From positions 11,672,974 through 11,736,973 of the forward strand of contig CM046853.1 in assembly GCA_025617745.1 (NCBI GenBank): 64,000 nt of DNA, in the 5' to 3' direction. The notes under the pieces were generated by a model. That model was not told the DNA's origin and did no database searches. It saw only the letters and a list, made by a program, of their open reading frames with translations. Of this stretch, positions 1 through 64,000 are shown in pieces. Made by a program: the position numbers and the translations under genes. Each line of letters opens with the position of its first letter. The stretch's first letter is position 1. The DNA is from Heliocidaris erythrogramma (Eukaryota; Echinodermata; Echinoidea; Camarodonta; Echinometridae).

Positions 1-12
1 GGTGGAACTTGC

Positions 13-3000: not shown

Positions 3001-3493
3001 TTGGGGCACGTTGGTCATGAACTTGATGACCCCTCAATATCTTATCTGCCCTATTACAAGGGTCCATGTGATCATATTTTAACTGTACAGCGCTTTTATC
3101 TTTTTGCTGGTCAGAGAATCCAGACTGATCATCATATTCAGTCATACTCGAGACAGTGGGACATGCCTCTGATGATAATTGTCGATTGCCGATGACGAGT
3201 CCTACCCGTTTGGTGCTTACCCCAATGTTTCTCTCCCCTGCACTTTTGTTGTTCTCTAACGATCTGATCCTCATTATGTTCTCCAACGAACCAGATTTTA
3301 TATTTTCCTGGCATGCAACTGCTTCTTCACTATTTAACTTCTCTGAGCTGATACAATCTTTGATGGCACGATTTCTGGTAGATTGTGAATTCCATTCAGG
3401 TTCCGATTTTGAGACATCGTTTTGAGAACTGTGCTGTTCAGGCCTTGGCCTTTTTTCATCACCATTTTTTTCGTCAGCTGATTCACTCGAGTG
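13..3493 (-). CDS. BTB-kelch gene, exon 2 (repeat region, BTB, BACK, first kelch blade)
   Basis: A single frame stays open for 1,160 codons after the acceptor TTTTACAG|CACTCG at 3493. Near residues 240-303 are three copies of a ~20-residue unit (KQTEQLxGDERYAQ). At ~536-760 are four diverged copies of a 54-59 residue unit that begins PQNxLPxNLRND and ends ERRxQKAxI; another copy start lies near residue 347. BTB follows from the Met at 1360, then BACK (to ~690), a Ser/Lys-rich linker, and the kelch start VVRIGGISRTW with KRWEQWASF and NSIYISG near the edge. The frame lacks a stop inside the window. The exon probably ends at 13 in a GC donor (CAG|GCAAGT), in the place where kelch blades normally show GG. 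Confidence 0.85.
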
Positions 3494-5194
3494 CTGTAAA
3501 ATAGAATTTAGACAGGAATGAATACCTCCATTAAACTTAGTCTACTCCTTTCCTACCTTTAAAGCCCACCGCACACTATACGATCGGTCTACGATCCGAT
3601 TTTGAAAAATAACAGCTATAAACAGTTTAACACATAGAATATATTTTACTGAGGTTCTGAATAATTACATAGATAGTAAAATCGAAATTACGGCCCATTA
3701 CGAGCCTTCTAGTCGGGGGAAAGGCCAAATCGGTTCCGAATCGTAGTGACGTCAGAGTAGTCCTGCGATTGTCTACGATTTCAAGTTCAAGTTCAAGTTC
3801 AAGTTTATTTAACCAATTCATTAAACATAGACATTTTACAATAAGATATATGTAATAAGAATAATGAATGAAACTGATTTGGCCATTATTCCGGATATAA
3901 GGCTGACATCGCACCAAATTCATATGTTGAGTATTCATATTATTGTTCAGAACATGAATCAGGTAGCTCTCACTTATTAAACTGCCTATATTTAAATATA
4001 TTGCGACTTGTTTCCAACATCGGATCTTTGACCGATCGTATAGTGTGCAGTGGGCTTAAGAGGTTAAAAGGTAATAAGCATCGTTGAAAAGGGCCATGGA
4101 TTTGTTGATTCTAGAATGGCTAGGGCAAAGTCGATAACATATTTCGCTTAATAGGAAAGTTTTAAAACTTTCCTATTAAGCGAAATAACTATAAATTGAA
4201 CATAAAGTAGGATTGGGTTTATATCATAATTGTATTGGGGATCGGGGAAACTGCATCCATACTATATGTAGATATCAGAGTTTTAGGCACGTTTAACAAC
4301 CTTCAGGCAAAAGGCCTATTATTCGTATTCAGTAGGTTGGCGCATTTTCCTTGCATGGTCTTCCAAAATGAATCCTACTTCGTGAAATGTATACACGCAC
4401 GTCGTGTGTCCGGACAGGTTGCTTATCCCGACTGGTCACTTTTAAACAATAAATCGAACAATTATTGTAAATTATGTAAACATGTAAATTATTATAAATC
4501 TTTCACAAGATAGGTTGACCAAACAATAAATTGCAAATATTTGCCGATTTTAGTGTTAGGCCTATTTGATGCATAATTTTCGTAAAATCCGATGGCAAGA
4601 TTGGCAGGTCAAATTTTCAAGTGCCCGGATACACAACACCCCCCCCCCCCCCACCATCCTACGTGTAATCCGTCCTGCTGGACAAAAATGAATATTTCAT
4701 TATGTTGACATAATACTACTAGACCTAAAAGGTAATTATTCGAGGCATTTCGGCCTACTTTATGAATTTTTTAGCCCGTTAGGATTTCCTGTTTCACAAT
4801 TTTATAATTGTAAAAAATATACCTAGACGATATCTTTATAACCCCACCTTAAGCCAATCTTATAAGGCTTGCAAAACCTTTTTCTAGTTTTAGCTTAACT
4901 TGGCCCCCGTCCCCTTTATAACCGCCACTCATACCCACATAATCTTACCTGCAAACCATATTGAGTTTTTGTGTTTTTCATGTAGGCTCCAGATTCATCA
5001 TCTCTCTTTTGCCCTAATGGGCTGCAGATACAGTATTTGTAGTCATTATCATCACCATCATTCCATGTGCGGCATTCTATGTTACTGCCATCTTCCTCTT
5101 CGTCACTGTGGCATGAGCAAAATTCTTCTCCGGCACTCCAAAATTCTTCTCCATTCTGTCGATCATCCGGAGCAGTTTCAGCTAGATGATCCAT
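13..5194 (-). CDS. BTB-BACK-kelch (KLHL/KBTBD-like) gene, partial at 3' end
   Basis: Two exons (4949-5194 and 13-3493) join in phase 0 and encode about 1,242 residues before the gene leaves the window. The order is a short acidic N-terminus (residues 1-82), a long charged and repetitive region (to ~790), a BTB domain (~800-910, with FCDVNIVVDDHAFLAHRVVL and YMYTG), a BACK domain (~915-1030) and the first kelch blade (~1183 onward). Proteins of this class usually dimerise through BTB, bind Cullin-3 and present substrates with the kelch propeller; here that role is inferred from the family. Typical KLHL proteins have only a few dozen residues before BTB, so the ~790-residue extension is unusual. 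I cannot name a vertebrate ortholog. The ATG at 5194 follows an in-frame TAA with no earlier ATG, but an ATAG acceptor-like site just upstream means a further 5' exon is possible. Confidence 0.85.
3563..4056. mobile_element. MITE in intron 1 of the BTB-kelch gene
   Basis: Terminal inverted repeats of about 30 bp (AGCCCACCGCACACTATACG at the left, its near-complement at the right) flanked by TAA on both sides (3560-3562 and 4057-4059). A 3 bp TWA target duplication is typical of PIF/Harbinger elements. Inside is a short run of TTCAAG repeats (3780-3805). It has no coding capacity. Confidence 0.7.
4141..4186. repeat. Perfect 46 bp palindrome
   Basis: Two 23 bp arms meet at TTTTAAAA with no mismatch and no spacer. 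The outer end is ATTTCGCTTAATAGG. It lies in intron 1 of the BTB-kelch gene, just beyond the MITE. Confidence 0.85.
4949..5194 (-). CDS. BTB-kelch gene, exon 1
   Basis: 82 codons starting at ATG 5194 and ending at a strong donor (CAG|GTAAGA) in phase 0. The peptide is acidic and Cys-containing (stretches such as HSDEEEDGSNIECRTW and YCICSPLGQKRDDESGAYM) and matches no domain I recognise. The frame is open upstream to a TAA and has a GTG at 5209, but ATG 5194 is the first Met. Linkage to exon 2 rests on matching phase and the good donor/acceptor pair. Confidence 0.65.
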
Positions 5195-11048: not shown

Positions 11049-14000
11049 CTGCAGATAACATATAAAAGAATATAGAAAAGCTTAGGACAAGGTTAATCTA
11101 TGGCTGTGAGTATACCTCTCATGGCTGTAGTATAATTATAATGCCAGGGGCGGATCCAGGATTTAGTATAAAGGGTGGGGGTACACAAATGCAGGTTTGT
11201 CAACTTTTGGAAAAGGTAGACCCGTATTTTTTGGTCTTGCCAGCTTCTCGAAAGTCGCGCAGTTGGGGGGGGGGGGGGGGGGGGGGGGGGTGGCGACAAA
11301 ATAAACTTTTTTCGCCAGACCTCCAAAATTCGTTCAGTGGGGGGGGGGGGGGGGGGTATGGGGTCCAGTTTTCTTCCATACTTCGCTGACAAGCAAAAAA
11401 AGTGTTCATTCTAAACGGAGGGACACAATAGACAAAAGGGCGGATTCTTTATGGTCAAAATGCATATATTTTCTTCCAAAGGGGGGGGGGGGGGCACGGG
11501 ATGGAAGTGCCTTGGATCCGCCACTGTATAATGCAACGATATGACAATAATAAAAAGACTTCCCTTTTATCATGTTTATTGATACAATTTAAGATTGACA
11601 AGACTGAATGACTTTATTCACATTGCACTGATGGATGATGAACAAGCCTGAGAAGTTTGTGTATATAGGAATGATTTCAACCCAACGGTACAGCTACAAG
11701 GGGCACGACCGGGGCATGTGCATTTCCACAGAACGGCAAAAAGAAAACTAGAAATATCACTGAAGATGATGATTAATACCCCCGCCCTGTGACAACAACC
11801 TTTCTTGACTTTTGGTCGAAAACTGAGGAAGTAGTTCGATCCGCAAGGTGTTTCCTTGATTTTCTGCCATAAATATGCCATTACCATGGCAACGCAGATT
11901 CCGACTCATCCGAAAAATATGTCTTGCACATCTTCCCATCAAGACCAATGTGTGTACCAAATTTCATGACTTTCGGTCAAAAACTGAGGAAGTGGTTCGA
12001 TCCGCAATGTGTTTCCTTGATTATCTGCCATAAATATGCCGTTACCATGGCAACGCATATTCCGACTCATCCGAAAAATATGTCTTGCACATCTTCCCAC
12101 CAAGACCAATGTGTGTACCAAATTTCATGACTTTCGGTCAAAAACTGAGGAAGTCGTTCGATCCGCAAGCTGTTTTCCTTGATTTTCTGCCATAAATATG
12201 CCGTTACCATGGCAACGCAGATTCCGACTCATCCGAAAAATATGTCTTGCACATCTTCCCACCAAGACCAATGTGTGTACCAAATTTCATGACTTTCGGT
12301 CAAAAACTGAGGAAGTAGTTCGATCCGCAAGATTTGCAACGGACCGACCGACCGCCCGCCCGCCCATCGACTGATTCCAGTATACCCCCTTCAAACTTCG
12401 TTTGGCGGGGGTATAAAAAAGGATGAAGGGGAAGGAAAAACAAAAGGAACATGATACAAATACTCGATTTCCTTGCTCTCTCGCATTTCATTCACCAAGT
12501 AAGACCTTTGAACCCCCATCCCCCCACCCGAAACAGTGCCCTCTCAATAGCTCGACCCATGCTATGCCACTGTTCCAATCTATCATAACTGGTTAGCTCA
12601 CCTTCAAGGCTAGTACATCAGGCGGGATATAGGGCTGAGGTAGTCGACGATTTCTTTTGAATGGATCAATACCAGCTTGCCAGCAACACAAACCAAGAGC
12701 AATGATGAAGATGACTTGACACATGGTTATGGCAGACACGATCATCACACCTGTTCTACCCCTTCTTCTACCTATTGGTTGTTTTAAATGGAAGTGAAAA
12801 GTGCATATGAATCAAACGAGTTTTCTGGGCACAGAATTATTTCGATATGCCTGCAGATGATATCCAAATTTACCAGATGGTTATACACGTACATTAATCA
12901 TGTCATAACTGAGAAGAGGAACGAACAATGCATAGAGTCAATAACAGTTTGGGCTTATGGTAACAAGATTAACTCCTGTGAATCATTGTTTGGTAGTTAC
13001 TGATAAAGAAATCGATCAAAACTGATATATGTAAATAAAAGTTATCTATATCACAGCGATTGTTATTTTGTCTCGAAATGCCCATGTAGCATGAAATGTT
13101 TAAATTTTCAAAGAAAACCTTTGTGAATATGGTTATGCGAAAGAGACGCATTCGCATTTCGCCACAAGAATATCGAACCTTGTCAACAGAGGATTTTGTA
13201 AATTTATACTAATTATTCAATCATTATGTAGGTTTTTTAGTGCATAGCATAAAAATCAATTTGAAAAATGTCTGGTCGTCATACGCACTTTCTTGGATGC
13301 TTGGGAGAGCAATGATGCCAGGTTCAGTCGAAGGGCTTTCTCCTGCCATGCTGAAAGCGCTCACCCATACAAGATACTTCTCTCCTGCTTCGGAGTTGAT
13401 CAAAGTGTATTCAACCAGATCTTCTCCCCGTTCCTCTGCTATTATAGTGATGTTTTCCACTCTTGTTTCGTCTATTATAAGGATTTAAAACACATTCGAA
13501 GACATCATTATCATTCCTTAAAATGATCATACAATCTTGGGCACTTATTATAACATTCGTCAAGAACGTATTTACTTTGTGAAATAATGTACTTATGTAT
13601 AAATCTTAATTTTTATTTTTCCTTACAGGAAATCCCCCGCAACTTTGATTTTCTTCGAAATATTTGTTTAACCCTGCCTGCCATTCAATATATTTTGTTC
13701 TTCTATAAAACACGTCTCTGTAGGTCTTTGTAACATGAAATGTCATGGTAGTATCCACATGGTTATTGTTAGATTTCCATTCCTTCACTTGAAAAGTGGA
13801 TTATCCACTTATAAGCATCATAACAGTAGCAATATCGGTCAGAAGTAGAACTGCTCTGAAAAATGGAAAATAAATCGCAATTTATTAAAATAATTACTTT
13901 ACCTATGCAAAGGAGATCTGTCCACTCCACATAGTCTTTACTATTCCTGACAGTCTCCTCTACGAGAACCTGTGGATAAGAACTATTCAGTGTGCAGGAG

Positions 14001-17000
14001 TAGATCAAATAACCCAAGATGACGCCATTTTCTTCCATAGGATCCATAGGGAACCACGTGACAGAAATCCAATCGTCATTTTCCGATGACTCGTTCAAGG
14101 TGAGGTTTCGCGGCGCAGCGGACGGAGCTGCAAGAAATTGAAGACACAAAGCTCAACCTTACTCTATCATTCGGAGATCATTTAAAAACCTGCTCAAATT
14201 AATTATTGGGCTGGTATTAATGATACAACGTTTCTGATAATATCATATCATTTTTCATGATCGAGCTTATCATTCTCTCGAAACTTATAAGGTTGCTACC
14301 ATCGGCAAAATTTGACGTAGTTATCAAGTTAATAAATCTTACCAGTCATCAGAGTTCTTGCTGTCACTGGGTTCGACCAGGTTATCATAGGTACAACATT
14401 GAAATTAAGTGCGCATGATATTGAAGTCTTCACTTCATATGTGGCGTAGGATCTCAACTGGCAAAATGTGCAGTTTTTATTCAAGCATTCATGTTTCACC
14501 TGAAACATGAAAAGTTACAACGAAATCATTAAAATATTTTTAGGGCTAAAAAAATGGACAAGAATTAATTGAGAGTAAATTAACCAACATAAATATAAAG
14601 CACAAGGACCAATATATGGCTTTAAAATGAAATAAGAGGTAAAGACAAACAAACAAATGAGAAGAAGTGCATTCTTCCCTCCAAAACGAACCCAGGAAAC
14701 AAAGAAATACGAAAGAGTTAAATTTCTCTCCGTATTTTTGCCTGAAAATAGCCAGCATATTTTAGGCACAAATGAACTGATCCTTTTTTTTAATGTTAAG
14801 ATTGTACCTTGAAAGCAACATGACGAAAAAGCAAGATATAAAAACGTAAAGGGGGAAAATTGTAAATAGTTCTAGTCAAGTGCATGGCTCTGCACACCAA
14901 TCTGAGCGGATAAAGGGAAGGCAGCATTTTATTTTTCATTTTTTTTAAATATAATACCCGCAGAATCCCAACAACCATTCTCATTTTCAATGATAACAAC
15001 TATTTCCAAAGTCCTAAACATGCTTCCATGCACGAAAAACAATCTTCTGACAAAAGTCTGGAGCGATGATGATCATCTTTGTGGGTGATCACCATTCTGG
15101 GAGCATTCTGGGATCTTGGGGGAAGAGTCTGCACGAGAAATCAGGGTTCGATCCTTATACTCTGTGCATACACACCCTTGGACAAGGTATTTTACCCACG
15201 TCCCAAGGCGTATTAATTTGGTACCTGACAATGTTGGGATAATAATAATCGCTGGGCCCTTAGGGAGAACAAAATGAATACTGATGAGACTATATAGGCC
15301 TACCCTAAGTAAATAAGACCGCATGCATCGTTGTTCTTATTGTTGTTATTATATTTTATCATTATATCATTATCAATATCATAATCATTATCATCAACAT
15401 CATCATCATCATTAAAACCTATTATAACATGGAAATGGATCAGAAATGAAGGATTTCACCTACCCGGATCCACTCTGAGTTCAATGATGGATGATGCAGA
15501 TCTCGATATTCGATCGTGTTAGTCAAGAGTTTGTCCATTCCTCACTCCCAACCGCTTGGTTGCTTCCACGTTACTGTTAAGCATCCTGGTTTAGGCACCG
15601 TCACGTCGACTTCTCGAACAGAATTTGGCCGAACTAAAAAGGGAAAAAGCACATGCCGATCAATGGTGCCATGCAAAATCCTAAACGTAATGCGCAGGGT
15701 TTGTCAATGCTATAGATTCTGTGGAAATGTGTAATGAATTTAAAACAAAATAAAATCTCAACTTTACATTGTGACAACTTATCGGTGAAAAATTCTTCAA
15801 CGATTCAGTAGTAATCACAGGTGACTTTGTAAAATTTCTTTGATTTTCACTAACACTCTGTACTATCTTTACAGCAAAACAACATAAATTACTTATAATT
15901 TTTGATAGACCGCACTGAACTTTGATACATAATTGTCTTCAAACATTTGGATGAATGTAAATAACAATATATGGAATTAAATTTCAAGCAATCTTTGAAA
16001 CTTACTAATGTTGAAGTAGTTCAACTGCTGCTGAAGAGAGTTCATCCCGAGTTTGTTTGCAGAAATCACACGAATTTGCACCATGTCGTGACAACCCTTG
16101 CATATACCCTCACATCTATTCCGTTCAGTCTGCGTGCATGTTTGCCACCATCTATTTAAAGAAAGAAAAAATATATATACATGTATTATGCTAATTATGA
16201 TGATTCGCACATCAGTTGTAAGGTAAAGAGAAAGTTTCGAGAGAAACTGTGCTACATAAATATTCTACTACACGTATAGATTAAAAAAAATCCCCAAAAC
16301 AAACAAACACGAACAAATCATAATGATTTTGAATAATCTTTCTTTCCCTGCAGGCAATTTCAAAGAGGATCATCCAGGCAAATTTGGACAATAATTGTGT
16401 CTTTGTAGGAGGTTAATTCCTTTTTAGCATTTATTTTCAATACTTCGCACAGTACATGTTATGTTGAGTGCTGATTAAAAAAGTAGAACCATTTTATTGA
16501 ATATGAGCAAACGCTATTCTCAAATGTTGCCTTAGTGAGATATATACCGGTACATAATTATTGTGTAATATAAAGGTTTGGGAAAAATACAAATTATCAC
16601 ATTAATAGATCTTGCTATCCTGAATATCACAAACCCACAAAAGCACTATACACATATTGATATAATCGTGGGAATGTGGCTTGAATTTCTTGGTCCAGGG
16701 GAAAAAAAGTTATTTCTAGTTATATCTGATATATAATATCAGATATATATATAAAAAAATATATATAATGATAGCATTTCACATGCAATCATGTTCTTCA
16801 TCATTGATGACATGAATCTTTTGAAGCCGTATCCGGACAACTACCCTCTGGACATTTACCCCCCCCCCCCCGGACAACTACCCCCGGCCAACTACCCCCT
16901 GAACAACTACCCCTAGGACAACTACCCCGCCAGGACAACTATGGAACTAAAAAAAAAGGTAGAATGAATTCAAGTTAACTTTGACCTTGAATATATGCAC

Positions 17001-20000: not shown

Positions 20001-23000
20001 ACAATATGAGACGAGCCTGTAAACAATCACAAATATATATATATATATATATTGGCTGGCCTTGCATAAACACTACATAAAACTTTATACCTGACACGCT
20101 ATCAAATTATGTATTTGAACAATGTCTGAATAAAAGTTGCAGGAAAGAGCGATCTGATAAAACATACTGACCATTCAAAGGCACCTCAAGTTTATTGCAT
20201 GTATCATCTTACTATACTGTACAGGTATATATTTGCTCGACTAACTTTGTTTTTACATGTACATGTATATACGTGTATTGTCATATTCTTGGTAAATTTA
20301 AAAAAGCTTTCATATGTTAGTTTTAGGTTTTAAGATTATAATATCAAAGATTGTCGGTCTAAATTTTGACTTTTCTTGAATAGAAAACTACTGCCTTATG
20401 ACACAAGCACAGGAAAACTAACTATAATTTATCATTTTCCATTATTATGTTCATGATAACATCAACAGCTGAATTGGTCTTGTACTGGCCTCCATAGATG
20501 AGGAAGGTTTTCTGCTTATTAGGGTCATGTGATCAATTTGAAAAAAAAAAAGAACACAATAATTATACTGAGAAATGCCTTATCAGAGGTATAACAGAAC
20601 ATACCTTTGAAATTCCAATTACACAGCAAAAAGGGACTACAACAATGGCGGATCCAGGGGGGGGGGGGCAAGAAAAGTATGCATTTTGACCATAAAGGAT
20701 CCGCCCTTTTGTCGATTGTGCCCCCCCCCCCTTTTAGAATGAAAACTTCTTTTTTTGCTTGTCAGAGAATTATGGAAGGAAACTGGACCCCCCATAACCC
20801 ATAACTTGCAATAAGCCATCGGGGGAGGGGTGCGGGGTTCGGGCCGGCTGTGCTTCCCTTAACCCGCCAGTGTTATTCTATATGATATTTATTATCATTA
20901 TTCGTAAATACTTTTTTTAAAACTAAGAATAAAGTGTGCACTATCTTCCCCACCAGCTTTATCATGTTTATCAATCTTAATTCAGACCAACATCTCCTTA
21001 TTTTTACATACATTCTTTATACAAAAAAAATCATTCAATGGCTACTTTGCTAATTAATGTGACGAATTTACCGACGATCATTTTGCTTATTAAAAATATA
21101 GATAATGATGTAAAGATGTAGAATATTTTCATACGGTCTTACTCCCGATAAAAACATGAACGCCTGGTTTTCCCGACCACTTATCATCCTCAAATTGGCA
21201 GTAATATTTTCCTGCATCTGCAGTGGTGACGTTATGCAAATGAAGCAGTGACGTAGAGACGTTTGGCGTGGCGTAATGAGATGCTGGGATCGGGATGGAG
21301 CTTTTGGTCCATATAATGGAATGTGATGTCTGATTGGTATTGTGTCCATGGTGAAGGGTGCAGGAGAGGGTAAGGGAACTCCCGACCTGGATTACAGGGT
21401 CCACAGGCTGCAGTGATGCTTTAGAACGAAGAAAATGAAAATAAAAGTAAATTAAGGCTATTCTTATGTGTATGTGTGTGTGCAGGGGCGGATACGGGGG
21501 GATCAGCCGCCCCCTTTTGAAACCGAACTGGCATATATACCTTAAGTACAGAATTAAAAAAAAAAAAACCCTTAATTGAATACTTTGCTGGCTCCAGCCC
21601 CCTCTTTTACAAAATTCTGGATCCGCCCCTAGTGTGTGTGTGTGTATGGGTGGGTTTACATAGATTCATTTGTGGGGTACAGAGAAGAATAGAGCACAAT
21701 GATGGCCTTTATTCCGTCATGCTTGTGGGGTACAAAATACAATAGAAGTGCTTGCGGGGTACAAAATACAATAGTAGAAAACAATAAAGTTCCCCACAAA
21801 TCAATGTGTGTATGCGTGCGTTTGTTTAGCATTATGTCCGAGGACATTTTCGGACAGAGAACAAAAAAAAAATCATGACAACAATGGTCCTCGGAAGCCG
21901 GACAATAGTCCTCGAACGTCGAACAATGAATTTATGCCTTATTCCGTCGACTGTCCGAGGACGAGTAACAATAGAGGAACAATAGTTGTCCTCGGAAGTA
22001 AAGCCATGTAAACGTGGGTGCGTGTGTGGGTGTGGGTGTGTGAGAGAGAGAGAGGGGGGGGGGGGAGGTATATTTCGTTAAAAGTATGAGCTAAATGAAA
22101 TGTGCATATATATCACTCTCCTAATTCAATTTCGTATTACGTGTTAATGTCACTAGATGCGAAAATATCCAATCCAATCAGGGTATTTATATAGCGGCAA
22201 TATCTAGTTGCCTAATCAAAGGCGCTGTTGAGACTGAAAAACTACCAAAATTTCTGTTCATGATTCTACCTGGGAAAGACAAGAATATATGACTAGTTGT
22301 AAGCAATCTGAAATATGTATGTCTTAAGTTTGGTTCTGAAAGTGAATAGCTGGTCACAGGAAGAATTTGAGGAAGACCGTTCCACAACCACAACCTCGAC
22401 GCACAAGCAGTAAATGATCGATCACCTTGAAGAGATCGTGTTCGAGGACTCTCAAACAGATATTTACCTGCAGATCGCAAATTAGTTCGAGGATTATAAG
22501 AGGTCAGCAAGTCTGAAATGTACACAGATCCGTGCATTGCCTTCCATGTTAACAAAATAATTTTGTATTCAATTCTCTGTTTTACAGGAAGCCAGTAAAA
22601 TAACAACAACAACACGTAATGACGCGCTTTCATCACAGATATACAGCCATGGAAAATATTATTAGACCATGCTTCTGTAATAAGGGTACTATAATATGCA
22701 TACAAAATTATAAAAATTATTTGTCTTTGTATTTCATAAATGAATACCAAATTCCAGCAATTATACCTTGCTTTTATGATATCTTATTTCCTTCTTACCA
22801 CAAAAATAACACTATCTATCAGTAACCATTCTTGGTCTAATAATTTTTTTCCATGGCTGTACATTCCCCCCAAAACAAATAAGTTGTGTCACAGTGCAAC
22901 CATCACATCATAATCTTATGAGGGCAGTGAGGTTGTTTCTTTGTATTTGTTACATCTTACTTAATTATGCAATAACAATAACAACCTGCATGGGTGGACT

Positions 23001-49825: not shown

Positions 49826-51217
49826 CCACTCATAGCTACATTCCTATACTTCGTGTGTATAATGTAGGCAGTCATACACCTCATCTTTTTAAAACACCAC
49901 TGCACAAAAGTCACCAATATTCACTCAAAATTGGCATTTAATTTTCAAAAACCGACCCCAAAATATCCAAGAAATACAATAAATTCAACTCACCAATGTT
50001 GGAAAAGATATTTCCAAAAATGAAATCCGTAATTTACTGTTGATTCTCGCGAAACGAGCTATCGGAGTCATTGTGTACATTTCCTGGTCGCCGCGGGCGC
50101 TGACATCTCCCCAAAAGAGTTTTGTCCTCAAAAATTCGGTCCCTATGGCGTACACGGAAAAGTTCTGATTTTCTGTGTGCGCGATCGTAAAGATCGATGT
50201 GCGCTTGCGATCCCGAGTTTCTTCGTGGACAAAAATTATATTGGCCGATTTTAGTGTAAGACATCGGCAGTTTGTAAACAACACGCGATCGCGAAACAAA
50301 TCGGCGGGGATTTCTCCGGTTTTGGACAAGATTTTGACTTTGGATTTTGCTGAAAATATCAAAAGTTCTTCCTAACGGCCATTTGAGGTAGGAGTGAGAT
50401 TTTTAAGGGCTGAATTTGAAAGCAAGTATTTAAAATATTTATCTTATTTTTCCCCCCATACCTTTAGTACATGCGACAGAAAATACCAACTATTTTACAG
50501 TAATGTACCCGTGAGTGAGGCACACCACTCACGGGTACATTTCTGTAAAATAGTTGGTATTTTCTGTCGCATGTACTAAAGGTATGGGGGAAAAAATAAG
50601 ATAAATATTTTAAATACTTGCTTTCAAATTAAGCCCTTAAAAATCTCACTCCTACCTCAAATGGCCGTTAGGAAGAACTTTTGATATTTTCAGCAAAATC
50701 CAAAGTCAAAATCTTGTCCAAAACCGGAGAAATCCCCGCCGATTTGTTTCGCGATCGCGTGTTGTTTACAAACTGCCGATGTCTTAGACTAAAATCGGCC
50801 AATACAATTTTTGTCCACGAAGAAACTCGGGATCGCAAGCGCACATCGATCTTTACGATCGCGCACACAGAAAATCGGGACTTTTCCTTGTATGCCACAG
50901 GGACCGAATTTTTAAGGACAAAACTCTTTTGGGGAGATGTCAGCGCCCGCGGCGACCAGGAAATGTACACAATGACTCCGATAGCTCGTTTCGCGAAAAT
51001 CAACAGTAAATTACGGATTTGATTTTTGGAAATATCTTTTCCAACATCGGTGAGTTGAATTTATTGTATTTCTTGGATATTTTGTGGTCGGTTTTTGTAA
51101 ATTAAACGCCGATTTTGAGTGAATGTTTGTGACTTTTGTGCAGTGGTGTTTTAAAAAGTTGAGGTGTCTGACTGCCTACATTATACACACGAAGTATAGG
51201 AATGTAGCTATGAGTGG
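49826..51217. mobile_element. 1.39 kb palindrome with mirrored open frames
   Basis: Two 692 bp arms (49826-50517 and 50526-51217), each bounded by CACTCAY...TGAGTG, face each other across 8 bp. The arms are nearly identical. Each contains a frame reading inside to outside (minus 49985-50362, 125 codons; plus 50681-51022, 113 codons) starting MIFSAKSKVKILSKTG. The frames differ by a few substitutions; the right one ends early. Confidence 0.85.
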
Positions 51218-52755: not shown

Positions 52756-52844
52756 ATGGCATACAGTATGTATGTGTATATGGCTATGGCCATGGTGTTT
52801 ATAGGATGTGCTGCTAATGTGTTCTTCTTAGAGCTTATAGTAAG
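52756..52844 (+). CDS. SLC35B4: SLC35B4 exon 1 (coding part)
   Basis: 29 codons plus 2 nt: MAYSMYVYMAMAMVFIGCAA then NVFFLELIV, first transmembrane segment. Donor AG|GTGAGT. A TTTACAG acceptor at 52675 suggests the exon begins at 52676 with 80 nt of 5' UTR. Confidence 0.9.
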
Positions 52845-55800: not shown

Positions 55801-58800
55801 CATGTGTACTATATGTTTGCCAAGTAGTAGACATTGAACGTGTACAAACACACAACAGCATGTTGAGCTATGCCAATGTAGAGCACACGTCACGCTGTTC
55901 TTGCAAGGCAATACACCAATTGAGGTTTCTCCCCTTCACAGGTAAAGGGTATGGGTTGGGCATGAAGCTACAAACCCACTTCATGGGTTGACAGAATTAT
56001 TACTCCCTCCGGAAATTCAATGTTTAAATATGAATTTATGAAATATGGACAGCACGTCAGCCCTTATGAAGTGCCTCCCACCACTCTAAGAACCATTCCC
56101 CGCCCGTGGGTACCAAAAGATGGGGATTGAAAGGGGCAGGGGAGACGCCTATTCACACCAATAAAAAGGCCCCAAATCCTTAGCGAGATGTTGAATGTCA
56201 TCTTTTCGGAGAGCATCATTAAACGAGTTCATTAATTACATGTAATTTCTAATGTTGGAGCTCAAACAATTTAATATTGCAGGGTAATTTATGAGAACAC
56301 ATGTTGAAGCTCTACATATTTTAATAAAGATATCAAAGACATGGACATGTATATGTGAAATTTAATGGCAATTGTTGTAATGTGTGTATTTCAGTCACTT
56401 GCATTATATTGATCATATTAGAATATAGAATAAACTAGGTGCAGTGTATTCTTATTTCATCCTGTACTGGCCCCTTTTTTATTTCACTCATTTGTAGTAT
56501 CCTCCTTTAATCTTTTAAACAGTGAATTCCCAGGGAGTGGTAACATCATTACTTTCGCTCAGTTTCTTCTCATTGCTGTGGAGGGATTTGTGACGACCAC
56601 TCAATTTTGCTCAAAGAGACCAGTTATACCTATCAAGTAAGTACATGGACAGGTGGGATGAATCAATTTAATACATTGATCAATCATTTTGCCCTGTTAT
56701 AGGTTATTGTACCTTTCAAATATGTATTTTGATTAAGACCTTTTTCAAAACTTTTGTGGAACTCACCTCATAATATCTTAGAAGAAAAATCACATAAAAT
56801 CCATTCATTTTCTCTGTTTATTTTTTTAACAAGTTCATGGATGTATCAAATGAAAATGGTTTTCATGAATGTGTAAAAAAATATGAATTCAATTTGTATA
56901 CAGTATTCTTTCAAATGAGATTATATGATATCTCCATCCAATCAATATCTGTAAAATATTTGATAAAACTTATTGTTGGTAATGTGTAATCTTTTTGCAG
57001 GTTTTACTTCATCATGGTGGCATTCTTCTTTACTACAAGTGTAGTCAACAATTATGCACTCAACTTTAAAATATCTGTCCCTCTTCATACAATTTTTAGA
57101 AGTGTAAGTACATGTATAAGGAAATTCTTCTTGTAGTTTGTTGATACAATTTATGTAAGAAATAAGATTATTGCCTTGTTGATGTTTTGCTATAAAATGG
57201 AGGAGATTGTTTTCCATGGGAAGGTTCATAAAAAAATACAGTACGAGGTTAAAAGGATATGCCTCAGATACATGTAAGAATATTTCAATTTTTGTCCAAG
57301 TATAGTTTCTGTATTATATATGCCAGTGTGCTACCCTTTTTTGTCTCGCCCACCGGAGGTGAAGGCGAGACTAAGGGATCCAAATGTCGTCCGTCCGTCG
57401 TCCGTTTGTCACAAACGTTATGACAGATAACTTTGCAACCGTCACTCACTTTTCAACCAAACTTGGCTTGTAGATGCACTGAGGGGACCTGCATGTTATG
57501 GTGCCGTTGGAGGTCACATGATAGGGTCAAAGGTCATTTGAGGTCATACGTTAAAGTTTACCTGCAAGACTCTCTTATGACAGATAACTTTGCAACCGTC
57601 ACTCACTTTTCAACCAAACTGGGGTTGTAGATGCACTGAGGGGACCTGCATGTTGTGCCGTTGGAGGTCACATGATAAGGTCAAAGGTCATTTCAGGTCA
57701 AACATTATAGTTTACCCACAAGGCTCTCTTATGACATAACTTTGTATACGTCACTTTCCAAACAGTAATGTATATGCAAGCATAACTTATGTTGCATGGC
57801 AACAGAGATCACGATATTTCTAGTTATCGCATGTGGGCGAGACACATTATCGCTAATGCCTTGTGTTTACAAGTAAATTATCATGTTTTATACATAGGTT
57901 GTGTTCTGCCACTGGTTATTTCCATCATAAATTTCTGTTTTTATAAATTCACAGGGGTCTCTTATAGCGAACATGGCTCTGGGTATCATCATCTTACACA
58001 AACGGTGAGTGTATCAAAAATATATTTTGACTACAATCTTGTAAATTTTGGTATTTTGATGATTCTAGAATAGCTTATTAAACTTAATTGTGTTCAGTAA
58101 TTCGCTTTTCATGTACTCACAAATAAAGTAATGGTTAAGTACCGCTAATCACATAATTTCATTTCAATTCTCTTTCTTTCTCCATGTGTTCTTTAGCTAT
58201 GCTCCATCCAAGTATATAGCTATATTCATGATATCAACTGGAATTTGTGTGTGTACTCTCATGTCAGCCAAGAATGTGGTTAGTGGAATGCTTATTTCTC
58301 AAATCAAACAAAGTAATCATATTCTGACATCAAAATGGAGTCTTACACTTGTAAACTTGCATGCTTAAGTAGTGAAAGATAAAAAGTCATATTTAAAATT
58401 TCGTGAGACAATCTAGAACTGAATTAAAGAAGAAAGTTTCCATGAGTTGTAAGTATCAAATTGTACAGTACAGTCACTATCATTTTCACCTTTTATGAAA
58501 AGAATAACAAAACTAATAGTTGTGCATGTTTGTAATAGAAGTGTATTGACATCCGTGTACATAATTATTATGTATGTGAAATTTAGCATGGAATGACAGA
58601 TGTTTGTTATGGAAACTGAACCTTCCTAAGTTCCTCGCATCAGCTTCTACTCTGTGGAATTTCATAACCATTAGGAATACATCCTCCCTTGACAATTTTT
58701 TAAAAGACGTACATTTTCTTGGAGTAGTGATTCATTTTTCTTTAGATACGTAAATTTTAGATTATTTTATTATATGTAAAGCGTGGAGAGATAACTAGAG

Positions 58801-61800
58801 AATTAATTATTGATTATTATGGGCTGGATATATTCAACATTATTATTATTATCATTATTCATTTCATTTTGTTGCATTTATTTAAAAAAATATATATACC
58901 TTGTCAACATTTTACCTTTTGCCACTCTCCACCCTGGTGTAAATGGGTACCTGAAATGCTAGAGCGCTACATATAAATTTGGCCGCTCGGCTATGACCAT
59001 GGTAATAATGTTGGAGCGCCATGAGCATCGCAGCGTGACGGACCTGTGTGCTATACAAAAAGCCATCATTATCATTATAATCAATATATGTAAAATGATG
59101 TAAATCAAAAGATTAATTGCAGTGATACCGTTTAAAAGCAAAGTACTTGTGAGCAGGGTCTCAATTAAATGGATTAATATTGATATATCAATATATTTTC
59201 CTTACAGGGTGGTGAAGATCAGCCTAAGACAGAGGGATTTGAATCTACCTCAGATTTCATGTTATGGGTTATAGGTAAGACAACCATTGTCAGATTCCTC
59301 TCTTTCTTTCTCTCTATCTCTCTCTCCAGGCTCTCTCCTTTTCTCACAATAAATGTTGCTCTAATCAAAATATCACTAAATACCTCTCTATAGCATTTAT
59401 TTGTATTTATAAGCAATTTTGCTAATACAGTTATGAGGGAGGCATAGTTGTTTGGGGAGCTTGTGTATGTGCATACCAGTACATTTTATCAGTGCTGTGG
59501 TATGATATTGCAAATTGTCATTATATTGGAGTGATTTGTCCATTCTTTATCACAACATTCCTGAGAGACAGTGTAAATATTTAATATGTGGGCTTGAATA
59601 GAAGAAATGAGGAAATTTGATAGAGAGGGGTAGGAGAAAGTACAGATAGGTCTTTTCAGTTTAGAATATTGTTAATGTGGTTTCTTGAGGTCCACAATAA
59701 AGATTATAATTCAACTTGTCTGAAGTGTGCATAGTCATGTCTAATAGGACTTAATAGCTTCTGGAATAAAAAAGGGCAAATAGAAAAAGTGTGTACATGC
59801 ACCCACAGTACACATAGACTCTGGAGTGAAAAGGGCAAATAAAAAATTTGTACATTCATTCTGGAATGACAAGTGCAAATGATAGAGTTCATAATGTATT
59901 GCAAGTCCAAATCTAGATGTCTGTAAAATATAAATACATATCTATTATTAGATATAACAAATAGGTATATTAGATATAGTGAATAAGTGCTAATTTATTT
60001 GCAGACAAGTACCTTATCTTTTCTTTATTCATGTATTAATTTGTGTTCCCTCTATCCAGGTATATGTATGTTGACCTTTGCACTCTTTCTGTCTGCTCGT
60101 ATGGGAATCTTTCAAGAAATTCTTTACAAGAAACATGGCAAACATCCAAGAGAAGCACTTTTCTATTCTGTAAGTAATCAGATTCATCTACTTGAAAGTT
60201 TGTACTTTGAATTTATAGATTGAAGCAGATACACAAGTTTTCTGTTAATACGGTATTTTTCATGCCATTTCACAAGAAAAATACCGTATTAACAGAAAAA
60301 CGGCCAAAACATGTAATTTTACAAGTAAAAAAAAACCTGTTAATCTACAGTTATTTTTTACAGTGTAATGAATTTAAAAATGAATATTTTGTGTTACAGT
60401 TATACATATTTAGAGTAGATGGATAATACATATTTTTTGTACGGTACTTTAGAATTGTGTATTATGAATGGTGCATGTTCATTCATGAATTAGAAAGAGT
60501 TGTGCAAATACAAGATTAAGTACCTTTTATGAGTTTTTAAAGTTAAAATTGACAAAAAATAAGCAACATGTAATTAAAAATACCACCTTCATCAATGGCT
60601 GAAGAAATTTAGCATTTTCTATCAAGAATATCACAAGTCATTCTGTCTCAATTGATTTAGTATACTTAATCCCTATTTTATTCCCTTTATTAGATGTTTA
60701 GCATGTTCTGCTTATACTTTCTGATATGCATAGCATGTAACATAGTTTGCTTTCATTATACCTGCACCATTCTCGACACTTGTGGTTTGTTGTATAGTGA
60801 CTGGTATATAACTAATAAATCCTGTCAGTTTAATAGTTTGTATTTATGTTATTCTTACTACCCATAACATTTAGAATTATGTGGTTTTTTGACCTGATCA
60901 TTGTTTGGAAATGATCAACTTCCTTTTTGACATAGGTTTGGTTTCTTTGAATTAATAGTACATGTAGCTTTATGGAAATATGACAATACAAATATGGTAA
61001 ACATCAAACCATGGTCAAGATATTTAATTGGAATAGTTCCGAGTAAAGGAACCTGTTTTCTGTCATGAAGTACAAAAAATAGTGCACCCAAGTAATGGAC
61101 AAACCTTTGAAACCTGATGAAAAAAGGGTGTCAAGATTATAAACATTCTGCAACATGTGAATTTATGGTTCTTGTTTGTAGCCTTGACTTCAGAGAATGT
61201 TATCATTTTAAATGTGTAGCACATCAAGATTTAAGAACCCTATCCACTTCCGAAGGTTAAGGGCATGGAGAAGAATTGTGTTTCATGATTTTCTGGAATA
61301 AATGGTGTATTTTTCACATTCTGGTATGTGGTTAAGTCACTTATAGATAAATTTGTTGTTGGGAGAATCTTGTAAAATGTAATTATGTCTCACACATACA
61401 TTTTTGTTCTAAGAATTACAAATGAAATTAATTCTATATTATCATTTTATTTTTAAAGTGTGATGTCATATTTGTGTTAATATTGAAAAGAAAATTTTAG
61501 AAAACCATGATTATCAGTGAACAAAAGTGTAAAAAAATAAAGATAATTTTTTTTTTAATCACAGTTCGCTAACGCATAATAATATTTAGATCACAACTCA
61601 CAAGTATGACACATTGTTCCTATGTTAATGCACGTTCAGGTATATTTACATAACTGTATGCAGTATTTTCAAGATGTCTCCCATTAATAGATGTATACAA
61701 GAGAAGCAAATACATTCAGCAATTGTGATTGAAAAATATTTTAGTATATAGTCAACCATGATTGAGGCTTCTTCTCTTAAAAAAATGTTCATATTTAGTT

Positions 61801-64000
61801 ACATGTAGGTTGCACTGTCTATAATGTTAATTCAATATAGCAAGTATCCGTTCCTAAGTAAAAAATATTCTGTGAAATTTAATGTAGTCACAGATCACAC
61901 ATATTGCACATATTGTCTTCTTGTACTAATGCCTGTGCAAGTACATGTATATTTACAGGAAGCTGTTTGCAGTATATTCAAGAAGTCTTCCATGAATGTA
62001 TGCACAAGACACCCAACAATTCAACAATTGTGATTGACTTGATAAAATCTTTTAGCAGTGAGGCAACTGTGATTTAGGCTTCCTCTGGTAGGTGTAAATT
62101 TGATATAAGTTAGATTGCACTGTTAATAATCAGTTCAATATGGCAAGTATCCATTTCAAAGTAAAAAGCATTCTATGGGAAATTTAATGTAGCTTGAAAA
62201 GTCTCGAATCTAAAACTTTTTTTTGTCTCTGATAATCTAGCATGCTCTACCTCTACCTGGGTTTCTTCTCATGGGTCGAGATATCTATCATCATGCTGTA
62301 ATGTACAGTGCTACTGGTGAGTTTAACCTCCGTACAATGACTACACCTCAAGAAAGGCCACAGTGAAACCTCAGAAGTAGTATTTTATTACCATCTCTTT
62401 ATTTGCAAGTAAACATGTCCAGAAGGACAAGTTGTCATTAAATGTCATTCTATTTTCACTCCCAACATATTCAAAATGATGTGGCTTGAAGGCATTTGAT
62501 CATAGTGGTTACCAACCAAAAATATTTTCTCTAATGTGTGCATTGTGTATTAATGATAAAAGGCCAGGTAATGAAGATTAAAAGTTTCACGCCAAAGCAT
62601 TTATAATTAAGTACGATGCAAGGAAAAAATATTAAATTTCTGTATTATTCAATCACGATTACAAAACCAGCAGTTACAAACATGCAGGAGGTATGTCTCT
62701 CTTTATTTCTATTTTTTTTTTACTTGTTTCCAGTATAATTAATATTTTAAATAGGAGCAAAATGTAACTGTGTAAAAAAACACTTCACAAAGTTGTACAT
62801 CTTTATAAAGGAGGGAACACATGGCTCATGAAATAAAGTAACTTTTATGAATGACCATAGTGTTTGTATTTACGAAAACAACAGTTGTGAGATCAAGAGC
62901 AACGTTGGCTGGATGCCTGTAACTGGTTATGCGTTAATGAGAAAGTTGACTGGGGTTCTTGTGGTTTTTATTATTACCTTGTTTACGCATAGTCGGTGTT
63001 ATGTTTGATAATGCGGTGGACACTTAACGGAAAAAGTGCATAGTTTATAGTGTAATGAGTACTAAAAAAGATATTTGTAATAGGATAGCTTGATTTCATT
63101 CATGAAACTTTGGAATTGATTACATTCATATTATATAAGCTTGGTTATTACATGCAGACAATAAATGAGAATTCATGGAACATAAAAGTACAATGGCATT
63201 AAATAGGACAGGTTTCTGCCCTTACAGTTCAGCCACTTTTCATAAGAGCTTTAAGATCTTGTAAACTTGCAGGTAAATCTTGTCTTTATATGTGCACTTT
63301 ATTTAGGACACTACCAGTAAATATTTCATTTATGCCCATTTAACATTTAATATTGCATCTATGAATTTCTGGCATTTATTTGGTTATTATTTATCTTATT
63401 TTTCTTTCCAGAATCTATTATGATTGGTCTTGGAATATCTTTACCAAAGATGTGGCTTTATCTTATTGGGAATATGCTGACACAATATCCTTTTTATTGT
63501 ATTTATGATCATATTATATGAAAGAGAAAATATTGGCAATGTGAAGGATCAAAACTCTGAGAATCATAATTTCTAGTTATACATGTATAAACAAAAGGGT
63601 GATAAAAAGATGATGTGATGACTGAAGACAGAAAGAGATGAGAGGAAGAAGATGAAGAAAAGGAAGAACATAAATAGAGATACAGAAACAGAACTAAGGG
63701 TAATGATTCAAGAATAAACAGCATTAGATGTAGTGTGAGAGAGAGAAGGATAAATTAAAGTGAATATTAGAGAAAGATATAACAGATATGAAGCAGACAA
63801 AATAAAATAAGTCTTATTGAGAGTTAAGAGATGGACTCGGTGAAAACAAACTACTTATTTCTTCCCTTAACCTTTGACCTTACGTATATATGTATTCGTG
63901 GTGTGTTCATCCTAACCTCGGAGTGTCCATCCCTCATCACCACGTTAGTTGTCACCCTCCGCAAGTTCATCAGCCTTGTTGCTTCCATCATCTACTTTAA
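52756..64000 (+). CDS. SLC35B4: UDP-xylose/UDP-GlcNAc transporter SLC35B4, partial at 3' end
   Basis: Ten exons with consistent phases give 293 codons plus 2 nt; human SLC35B4 has about 331 residues, so roughly 40 codons lie beyond the edge. Diagnostic matches to the family run throughout: GCAANVFFLEL, ITFAQFLLIAVEGF, TTSVVNNYALNF, PLHTIFRSGSLIANM, LSARMGIFQEILYKKHGKHP, EALFYSHALPLPGF and TQYICIRGVFILTSECPSLI. It is a multi-pass nucleotide-sugar/nucleotide antiporter of the Golgi/ER membrane supplying UDP-xylose and UDP-GlcNAc for glycan synthesis. The start Met at 52756 aligns with the family start. All introns are GT-AG except the last visible one, which is AT-AC. Introns hold two hairpin-ended elements with nuclear-receptor half-sites. 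Confidence 0.95.
53012..53847 (+). mobile_element. Hairpin-ended tandem-module element 2
   Basis: Starts ATGCCTCCGCCCACCGAAGG, folds back through GGAGGCAT, runs into GTCCGTCCGTCCGTGCG, then has four ~170 bp modules (from about 53111, 53281, 53451, 53621) plus a partial fifth, and ends GGCGGAGGCATA, complementary to the start. Each full module contains AGGTCAAAGGTCA. It follows a T run. Confidence 0.85.
53211..53734 (+). promoter_or_regulatory. Four perfect DR1 nuclear-receptor motifs
   Basis: AGGTCAAAGGTCA at 53211, 53382, 53552 and 53722, each followed by further AGGTCA half-sites (GAGGTCACAGAGGTCA). DR1 is the classical site of RXR heterodimers and HNF4. Function here is inferred from the motif only. 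Confidence 0.5.
54895..55010. repeat. Short inverted repeat with CCCTAA-like core
   Basis: GCGACAGTCATGCACCCAAA and GGGTGGCTGTCGC form the arms; the core reads AACCCTAAACACTAACCCC. Too short and too irregular for an interstitial telomere. Confidence 0.5.
56523..56636 (+). CDS. SLC35B4: SLC35B4 exon 2
   Basis: 114 nt: GSGNIITFAQFLLIAVEGFV and KRPVIPI. Acceptor AAACAG|TGAA, donor TCAA|GTAAGT. Confidence 0.95.
57001..57103 (+). CDS. SLC35B4: SLC35B4 exon 3
   Basis: 103 nt: FYFIMVAFFFTTSVVNNYAL and SVPLHTIFRS. Acceptor TTGCAG|GTTT, donor AAGT|GTAAGT, phase 0. Confidence 0.95.
57343..57845 (+). mobile_element. Hairpin-ended tandem-module element 3
   Basis: Starts TGTCTCGCCCACCGGAGGTG, folds back through AGGCGAGAC, continues GTCCGTCCGTCGTCCG, carries two ~155 bp modules (GACAGATAACTTTGCAACCG at 57422 and 57580) plus a decayed third, and ends GGGCGAGACA, complementary to the start. 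It sits after a T run in SLC35B4 intron 3. Confidence 0.85.
57524..57690 (+). promoter_or_regulatory. Two DR1 motifs in element 3
   Basis: GGGTCAAAGGTCA at 57524-57536 and AGGTCAAAGGTCA at 57678-57690, with nearby single AGGTCA half-sites. Confidence 0.45.
57955..58004 (+). CDS. SLC35B4: SLC35B4 exon 4
   Basis: 50 nt: GSLIANMALGIIILHK. Acceptor TCACAG|GGGT, donor ACG|GTGAGT. Confidence 0.95.
58197..58278 (+). CDS. SLC35B4: SLC35B4 exon 5
   Basis: 82 nt: YAPSKYIAIFMISTGICVCT then LMSAKNV. Acceptor CTTTAG|CTAT; donor GTG|GTTAGT is the weakest GT donor of the gene but keeps phase 0. Confidence 0.9.
58917..59075 (+). mobile_element. SINE body fragment
   Basis: TTGCCACTCTCCACCCTGGTG followed by AAATGGGTACC matches the body of the SINE at 33199-33555; the tRNA-like head is missing. 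Lies in SLC35B4 intron 5. Confidence 0.6.
59208..59274 (+). CDS. SLC35B4: SLC35B4 exon 6
   Basis: 67 nt: GGEDQPKTEGFESTSDFMLW, the hydrophilic loop before the next helix. Acceptor TTACAG|GGTG, donor ATAG|GTAAGA. Confidence 0.93.
60060..60169 (+). CDS. SLC35B4: SLC35B4 exon 7
   Basis: 110 nt with the conserved LSARMGIFQEILYKKHGKHP and EALFYS. Acceptor ATCCAG|GTAT, donor TTCT|GTAAGT, phase 0. Confidence 0.95.
60170..62240 (+). other. SLC35B4 intron 7
   Basis: 2.1 kb, AT-rich. Contains an inverted pair near 60240-60300 (TCTGTTAATACGGTATTTTT and complement) and two related ~300 bp stretches near 61620-61830 and 61920-62130 sharing GATTGA-GGCTTCYTCT and GCAAGTATCCRTTYC phrases. No exon. Confidence 0.5.
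62241..62316 (+). CDS. SLC35B4: SLC35B4 exon 8
   Basis: 76 nt: HALPLPGFLLMGRDIYHHAV. Acceptor ATCTAG|CATG, donor TACTG|GTGAGT. Confidence 0.95.
62317..63411 (+). other. SLC35B4 intron 8
   Basis: 1.1 kb, AT-rich, nothing recognised. Confidence 0.5.
63412..63484 (+). CDS. SLC35B4: SLC35B4 exon 9
   Basis: 73 nt: SIMIGLGISLPKMWLYLIGN then MLT and the first two bases of a Gln codon. Acceptor TTCCAG|AATC; the 3' boundary is an AT donor (CA|ATATCCTTTTT). Confidence 0.92.
63485..63883 (+). other. SLC35B4: AT-AC U12-type intron of SLC35B4
   Basis: 399 bp. The donor ATATCCTTTTT matches the U12 consensus ATATCCTTT exactly. The branch site TCCCTTAAC (63863-63871) matches TTCCTTAAC at 8 of 9, its second A 13 nt from the end. 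The intron ends CTTAC. Only this boundary gives Q-Y-I-C-I-R-G-V-F in frame. Confidence 0.92.
63884..64000 (+). CDS. SLC35B4: SLC35B4 exon 10 (runs off the edge)
   Basis: 117 nt visible: ICIRGVFILTSECPSLITTL and VVTLRKFISLVASIIYF, the conserved C-terminal helices. The exon is open at the window end. Confidence 0.95.
   Translation, partial: VYMYSWCVHPNLGVSIPHHHVSCHPPQVHQPCCFHHLL

What the first reader, a model, noticed from the sequence alone, without database searches (positions are those of the whole stretch)
63485..63883. AT-AC U12-type (minor spliceosome) intron in SLC35B4
The donor ATATCCTTTTT, a branch site TCCCTTAAC 13 nt upstream of the end, and a terminal AC together fit the rare AT-AC U12 class, and only this splice restores the conserved TQYICIRGVF peptide. 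All other visible introns of the gene are GT-AG. AT-AC introns are a very small fraction of animal introns, so this one makes SLC35B4 expression dependent on the minor spliceosome.
Basis: partly seen in the sequence, partly recalled or inferred. Interest (0 to 1): 0.75.

Follow-up and report, generated by a model that had tools for sequence, protein, structure and literature searches.

The report
Minor-spliceosome intron in a sugar-transporter gene
One intron of an animal sugar-transporter gene (SLC35B4) carries the rare AT-AC signals of the minor splicing machinery, which looks real but is an ordinary member of a well-known class of introns.

Summary
Window 63485-63883 (399 bp, phase 2) is the last coding intron of an SLC35B4-like gene rebuilt as ten coding exons. 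Its donor ATATCCTT matches the published U12 donor at 8 of 8 positions. The branch site CCCTTAAC matches at 7 of 8, its A 13 nt from the last base, and the intron ends in AC. The other eight introns are GT-AG with U2-type donors.

Motifs alone prove little: simulated sequence holds this grammar about twice per strand. The reading frame decides. Of 43 in-frame junctions compared, 63484/63884 alone gives LTQYICIRGVF and aligns best to human SLC35B4 as recalled; of seven scored with Pfam it is also best (96.0 bits, next 83.7). C at +5 disfavours U2-type AT-AC splicing. The genome carries at least 11 U12 snRNA matches.

Dependence on the minor spliceosome was not shown: there are no RNA data, U11, U4atac and U6atac searches did not complete, and conservation in other animals was untested. 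AT-AC is about 26% of human minor introns. A new member of a known kind; low interest.

The parts
63485..63883 (+). AT-AC U12-type intron (intron 9 counted from the first coding exon; the last coding intron), 399 bp, phase 2, 30% GC
63485..63492 (+). U12-type 5' splice site ATATCCTT, 8 of 8 positions
   Evidence: consensus from a passage of PMC2831892
63864..63871 (+). Branch site CCCTTAAC, 7 of 8 to TCCTTAAC; branch A at 63870 (or 63869), 13 (or 14) nt before the last intron base
63882..63883 (+). 3' terminal AC
63412..63484 (+). Exon 9, ends ...ATG CTG ACA CA
63884..64000 (+). Exon 10, starts G TAT ATA TGT ATT CGT; runs past the window's end to a stop codon 140 bases beyond it (last coding exon)
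52756..52844 (+). Exon 1, coding part from ATG
56523..56636 (+). Exon 2
57001..57103 (+). Exon 3
57955..58004 (+). Exon 4
58197..58278 (+). Exon 5
59208..59274 (+). Exon 6 (weakly conserved; placed by splice sites and frame)
60060..60169 (+). Exon 7
62241..62316 (+). Exon 8

Best explanation
Window 63485-63883 is a genuine U12-type (minor) spliceosomal intron of the AT-AC subtype, the last coding intron of the SLC35B4-like gene of an animal whose species I did not identify. Shown here: the boundaries dictated by the protein, the perfect U12 donor, the near-perfect branch site at the optimal distance, the terminal AC, U2-type GT-AG signals at the other eight introns of my gene model, and U12 snRNA matches in the same genome. 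Inferred from established knowledge: the U11/U12 di-snRNP reads the donor and branch site, U6atac replaces U11 at the donor, and the minor spliceosome removes the intron. If it is kept, translation reads 11 more codons after ...LTQ and stops, so the last 85 residues of the normal protein are lost (only the first of them, Y, recurs by coincidence). As this is the last coding intron, such a transcript would have no later coding junction to trigger decay, unless the 3' UTR has an intron; that step is inference. Productive mRNA would then need both spliceosomes. Whether this has a regulatory role is unknown.
For: Junction 63484/63884 alone yields LTQYICIRGVF. Of 43 junctions aligned to the recalled human segment it scores best (297, next 280). 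Of 7 of these 43 scored with Pfam UAA it is best: 96.0 bits against 83.7, 82.2, 75.5, 70.7, 68.3 and 64.1. Donor 8 of 8 U12 positions and 4 of 6 mismatched to GTRAGT; branch site 1 mismatch, 13 nt. The other 8 introns have donors with 4-6 mismatches to U12 and 0-1 to U2. U12 snRNA (RF00007): 11 matches in the window's own genome, all over the cut-off of 53 bits at 103-113 bits; in the 8 copies that were fetched, the stretch ATGAGTAAGGAAAAT, which by recall holds the branch-binding sequence, is present in 8 of 8. Optimum branch distance 11-13 nt: passage of PMC3584512. ATATCCTT / TCCTTAAC / AC as the class definition: passage of PMC2831892. Phase 2 agrees with the bias of minor introns away from phase 0 (PMC10639083 passages).
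Against: No transcript evidence. Searches of the genome for U11, U4atac and U6atac did not complete. The expected lack of a polypyrimidine tract is not seen: 80% pyrimidine in the 20 nt before the AC, within the 60-90% range of the other eight introns. Motif grammar alone is at chance level.
Confidence: 0.96

Rival explanations
1. A conventional GT-AG intron is used here and the AT-AC motifs are chance.
For: One in-frame GT-AG junction exists, last exon base 63426 to first exon base 63829. U12-like donors with branch sites occur by chance at this frequency in 64 kb.
Against: It removes GLGISLPKMWLYLIGNMLTQ and adds a stretch without counterpart in the recalled human protein. Pfam UAA falls to 70.7 bits from 96.0, and it is not among the best eight of 43 junctions by alignment. 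Its donor GTCTTGG is a poor U2 site (sequence; judged by eye).
Confidence: 0.02
2. The intron is AT-AC but spliced by the major spliceosome (U2-type AT-AC, as in SCN4A intron 21).
For: AT-AC termini alone do not define the pathway (PMC2831892 passage). The 3' end is as pyrimidine-rich as in the U2 introns of the gene.
Against: [quoted passage not shown] Here +5 and +6 are CC, the donor is a perfect U12 site, and there is a U12 branch site at 13 nt.
Confidence: 0.01
3. A locus that is no longer expressed, in which the intron is real by descent but not used.
For: No expression data were available.
Against: Ten exons are open and in frame from ATG to a stop codon, with recognisable splice signals at all nine introns of the model.
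Confidence: 0.01

Closest known systems
U12-type introns of the AT-AC subtype (ATATCCTT...TCCTTAAC...AC)
   Same: Donor, branch site, spacing, terminal dinucleotides; single minor intron among major introns; phase other than 0.
   Different: One mismatch in the branch site; pyrimidine content at the 3' end is not reduced against neighbouring introns. No paper of the held library joins SLC35B4 with 'minor intron', 'minor spliceosome' or 'AT-AC' in its main text, and the one with 'U12' was an unrelated sheep study seen in the listing.
U2-type AT-AC introns (SCN4A intron 21 type)
   Same: Terminal dinucleotides.
   Different: No G at +5; U12 donor and branch site present.
SLC35B4-like nucleotide-sugar transporters (Pfam PF08449 UAA; the substrate class is recalled)
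   Same: The host gene: match from residue 9 to the window's end.
   Different: Nothing unusual seen in the protein.

Membership tests
U12-type (minor) spliceosomal intron, AT-AC subtype | 5' splice site RTATCCTT | tested here: met
   8 of 8 positions
U12-type (minor) spliceosomal intron, AT-AC subtype | Branch site TCCTTRAY close to the 3' end (optimum 11-13 nt) | tested here: met
   7 of 8 positions, A at 13 nt
U12-type (minor) spliceosomal intron, AT-AC subtype | Terminal AT and AC at the junction dictated by the protein | tested here: met
U12-type (minor) spliceosomal intron, AT-AC subtype | No distinct polypyrimidine tract | tested here: inconclusive
   80% pyrimidine in the 20 nt before AC, against 60-90% in the other 8 introns
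U12-type (minor) spliceosomal intron, AT-AC subtype | Host genome encodes U12 snRNA | tested here: met
   11 matches over the cut-off, best 113.4 bits; counts are lower bounds
U12-type (minor) spliceosomal intron, AT-AC subtype | Host genome encodes U11, U4atac, U6atac | not tested
   searches not answered
U12-type (minor) spliceosomal intron, AT-AC subtype | Removed by the minor spliceosome in cells; sensitive to U12/U6atac loss | not testable with these tools
   no RNA data
U2-type AT-AC intron | G at +5 of the donor | tested here: not met
   +5 is C
SLC35B4 orthologue | UAA transporter family domain over the whole protein | tested here: met
   PF08449, 7.9e-100, residues 9-293 of the part inside the window
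SLC35B4 orthologue | Closer to SLC35B4 than to other SLC35B members | tested here: inconclusive
   172 of 287 identities to human SLC35B4 as recalled; only a weak match to the solved SLC35B1 (E 0.0017); no tree made

The most novel reading that the evidence does not exclude
The U12 AT-AC intron at this position is a lineage-specific gain, or is retained here but lost or converted in vertebrates, and acts as a throttle that couples nucleotide-sugar transport to U6atac levels. Being the last coding intron, its retention would give a truncated, decay-escaping transcript rather than simple loss. Not excluded, because no orthologous gene could be examined.
Probability: 0.08. Interest if true: 0.4.

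Novelty: new member of a known kind. Interest (0 to 1): 0.12.

Why it matters
It is a clean, correctly read example of a rare splice class that gene finders built for GT-AG introns tend to miss or misplace (general knowledge, not tested here), so it matters for annotating this gene. It adds one position for comparing minor-intron retention across animals. It changes nothing about what is known of minor splicing.

Tried and rejected
Tried without result: Rfam scan of the window at gathering thresholds (no match); relatives of the exon 9-10 peptide in viral contigs (61 pattern matches, none confirmed); genome searches for RF00548, RF00618 and RF00619 (by recall U11, U4atac and U6atac), asked 4, 3 and 5 times and never answered (42, 51, 55; 43, 50, 53, 57, 59). 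Paper searches: SLC35B4 with 'minor intron' (0), 'U12' (1, a sheep nutrition study, listing only), 'minor spliceosome' (0), 'AT-AC' (0); SLC35 with 'U12-type introns' (1, a dog copy-number study, not opened); 'U12-type', 'AT-AC' and 'sea urchin' (4, none opened); minor introns with AT-AC, echinoderm, conservation (55, 20 listed, of which three were opened by passages: PMC10639083, PMC2831892, PMC3584512); 'minor intron-containing genes' with 'sea urchin' (2, not opened).

Rejected: chance motifs with a GT-AG intron (the one junction scores worse); U2-type AT-AC (+5 is C). Considered and rejected: intron 1 as a second minor intron. Its 3' end holds a U12-like branch site with 2 mismatches, but its donor GTGAGTAAG has no mismatch to the U2 pattern and 6 of 8 to U12.

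Full report
Observation. The sequence at 63485 reads ATATCCTTTTT and the interval ends in CTTAC at 63883. Joining 63484 to 63884 gives, in the frame of the upstream exon, SIMIGLGISLPKMWLYLIGNMLTQYICIRGVFILTSECPSLITTLVVTLRKFISLVASIIYF. The branch site TCCCTTAAC is at 63863-63871; counted from its second A (63870) the last intron base is 13 nt away.

Gene. tblastn with human SLC35B4 (sequence recalled from memory, not fetched) found nine matches with E up to 0.002 on the + strand between 52780 and 63998, one of them (57877-58047) covering the short exon 4 with non-coding flanks. Reading splice sites around them by eye, plus one weakly conserved exon at 59208-59274 (one search match, E 0.19 in a search of that region alone), gives ten coding exons: 52756-52844, 56523-56636, 57001-57103, 57955-58004, 58197-58278, 59208-59274, 60060-60169, 62241-62316, 63412-63484, 63884-64000 and beyond. 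The part in the window translates without a stop into 293 residues, which match Pfam UAA (PF08449) from residue 9 to 293 at 7.9e-100 and the recalled human protein at 172 of 287 identities. The DNA after the window (L009) continues exon 10 to a TAA 140 bases past the window's end, and the translation keeps matching the C-terminus of the recalled human protein. Exon 10 is thus the last coding exon, intron 9 the last coding intron, and the whole protein has 340 residues by arithmetic. The nearest solved structures by sequence are of human SLC35B1, a weak match (E 0.0017). No tree was made, so orthology to SLC35B4 rests on identity to a recalled sequence. The 5' and 3' UTRs were not mapped.

Introns. 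Of the nine introns in this model eight are GT-AG, with donors at 0 or 1 mismatch to GTRAGT and 4 to 6 mismatches to the eight U12 positions. Intron 9 is AT-AC, with 0 of 8 mismatches to the U12 donor, 4 of 6 to the U2 donor, and 1 of 8 in the branch site; it is 399 bp long and in phase 2. The 20 nt before its AC are 80% pyrimidine, within the 60-90% of the other eight, so the 'no polypyrimidine tract' feature is not seen.

Chance. The motifs by themselves would not convince. ATATCCTT occurs 3 times on + and 5 times on -, against a mean of 2.12 in 100 first-order Markov sequences of 64,000 bases. Donor octamer plus a branch site with at most one mismatch plus AC within 5 kb has a null mean of 1.97 donors (0.9 for introns up to 1 kb); the window shows 3 such donors on + and 1 on -. 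What convinces is that the protein fixes the junction. The zero-order probability of ATATCCTT at one given position is about 3.5e-5, and that of an acceptable branch site 9-15 nt before a given AC is about 0.014.

Alternatives. Among junctions with the last exon base in 63440-63559 and the first exon base in 63600-63929, 42 with termini GT-AG, GC-AG, AT-AC, AT-AG or GT-AC stay open and keep CIRGVF. None is GT-AG or GC-AG, and only 63484/63884 gives LTQYICIRGVF. Over a wider range (last exon base 63420-63619, first exon base up to 63959) one GT-AG or GC-AG junction is in frame, 63426/63829, which removes 20 residues. Aligned to the matching segment of the recalled human protein, all 43 rank 63484/63884 first (297; next 280; lowest 232). 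Pfam UAA scores over exons 8-10 were 96.0 bits for the AT-AC junction, 82.2, 83.7, 64.1, 68.3 and 75.5 for five others, and 70.7 for the GT-AG junction: seven of the 43 were scored. Reading on into the intron gives TQY by coincidence (CAA TAT), then PFYCIYDHII and a stop; that truncated form, exons 8-9 only, scores 32.7.

Machinery. The window's own genome (unnamed; 1,064,227,859 bases in 26 contigs) has 11 matches to U12 snRNA (RF00007), all over the cut-off, best 113.4 bits. Ten of them lie in two groups on contig C6 (three near 35.74 Mb, seven near 36.36 Mb), with one more at 10.2 Mb; the tool gives counts as lower bounds, and its 14 control genomes gave none. In the eight copies read, ATGAGTAAGGAAAAT, which by recall holds the branch-pairing stretch, is intact (8 of 8). 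U11, U4atac and U6atac could not be searched.

Mechanism. Shown: boundaries and signals, and U12 snRNA genes. Inferred from established knowledge: the U11/U12 di-snRNP binds the donor and branch site, either of the two branch As may be used, and the distance of 13 nt is at the optimum (11-13 nt, passages of PMC3584512). AT-AC termini alone would not settle the pathway, since SCN4A intron 21 is AT-AC and U2-dependent, but those U2-type introns have G at +5 (passages of PMC2831892); here it is C. Retention would replace the last 85 residues by 11 others. No coding junction would follow the stop, so decay triggered by a later junction would not be expected (inference; 3' UTR introns were not examined).

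Known context. The consensus ATATCCTT / TCCTTAAC / AC is the founding definition of the class (PMC2831892 passage). [quoted passage not shown] In the held library no main text joins SLC35B4 with 'minor intron', 'minor spliceosome' or 'AT-AC'; the one with 'U12' was an unrelated sheep study (listing). Supplementary lists could not be read, so an earlier listing of this intron is quite possible.

Not settled. The species; whether the same intron is minor-type in other animals (I examined no other animal genome); and use in RNA. The verdict is a real, correctly identified but ordinary AT-AC U12 intron.

Noticed in passing
49826-51217: Near-perfect inverted repeat: two arms of 692 nt, 97% complementary, with 8 nt between them, some 1.5 kb before the first coding exon of SLC35B4. 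Could be a foldback element or an assembly artefact.
   Followed up: partly
L001-L008 (contig C6 of the window's genome): U12 snRNA is present in at least 11 copies, ten of them in two groups about 0.6 Mb apart on one contig; the eight copies read are nearly identical.
   Followed up: partly
2-3541 (-): Open frame of 1180 codons reaching almost to the window's start, with BTB and BACK domains, a KLHL-like gene.
   Followed up: partly
21132-21665 (-): Immunoglobulin domain exon, with a match to Lep_receptor_Ig at 30.3 bits among other Ig models. A frame at 13772-14152 (-) looks FN3-like by eye but had no Pfam match, so possibly a receptor gene on the minus strand.
   Followed up: partly
54009: Another ATATCCTTT donor-like site inside intron 1 of SLC35B4, with branch/AC matches ending at 55650 and 55718; at the chance rate and with no exon evidence.
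   Followed up: partly
56498-56522: The 3' end of intron 1 holds CCTCCTTTAATC, resembling a U12 branch site (2 mismatches), although the donor is a clear U2 site.
   Followed up: partly
22190-22783 (-): Open frame that reads by eye like the C-terminal end of a non-LTR retrotransposon reverse transcriptase; no Pfam match.
   Followed up: no
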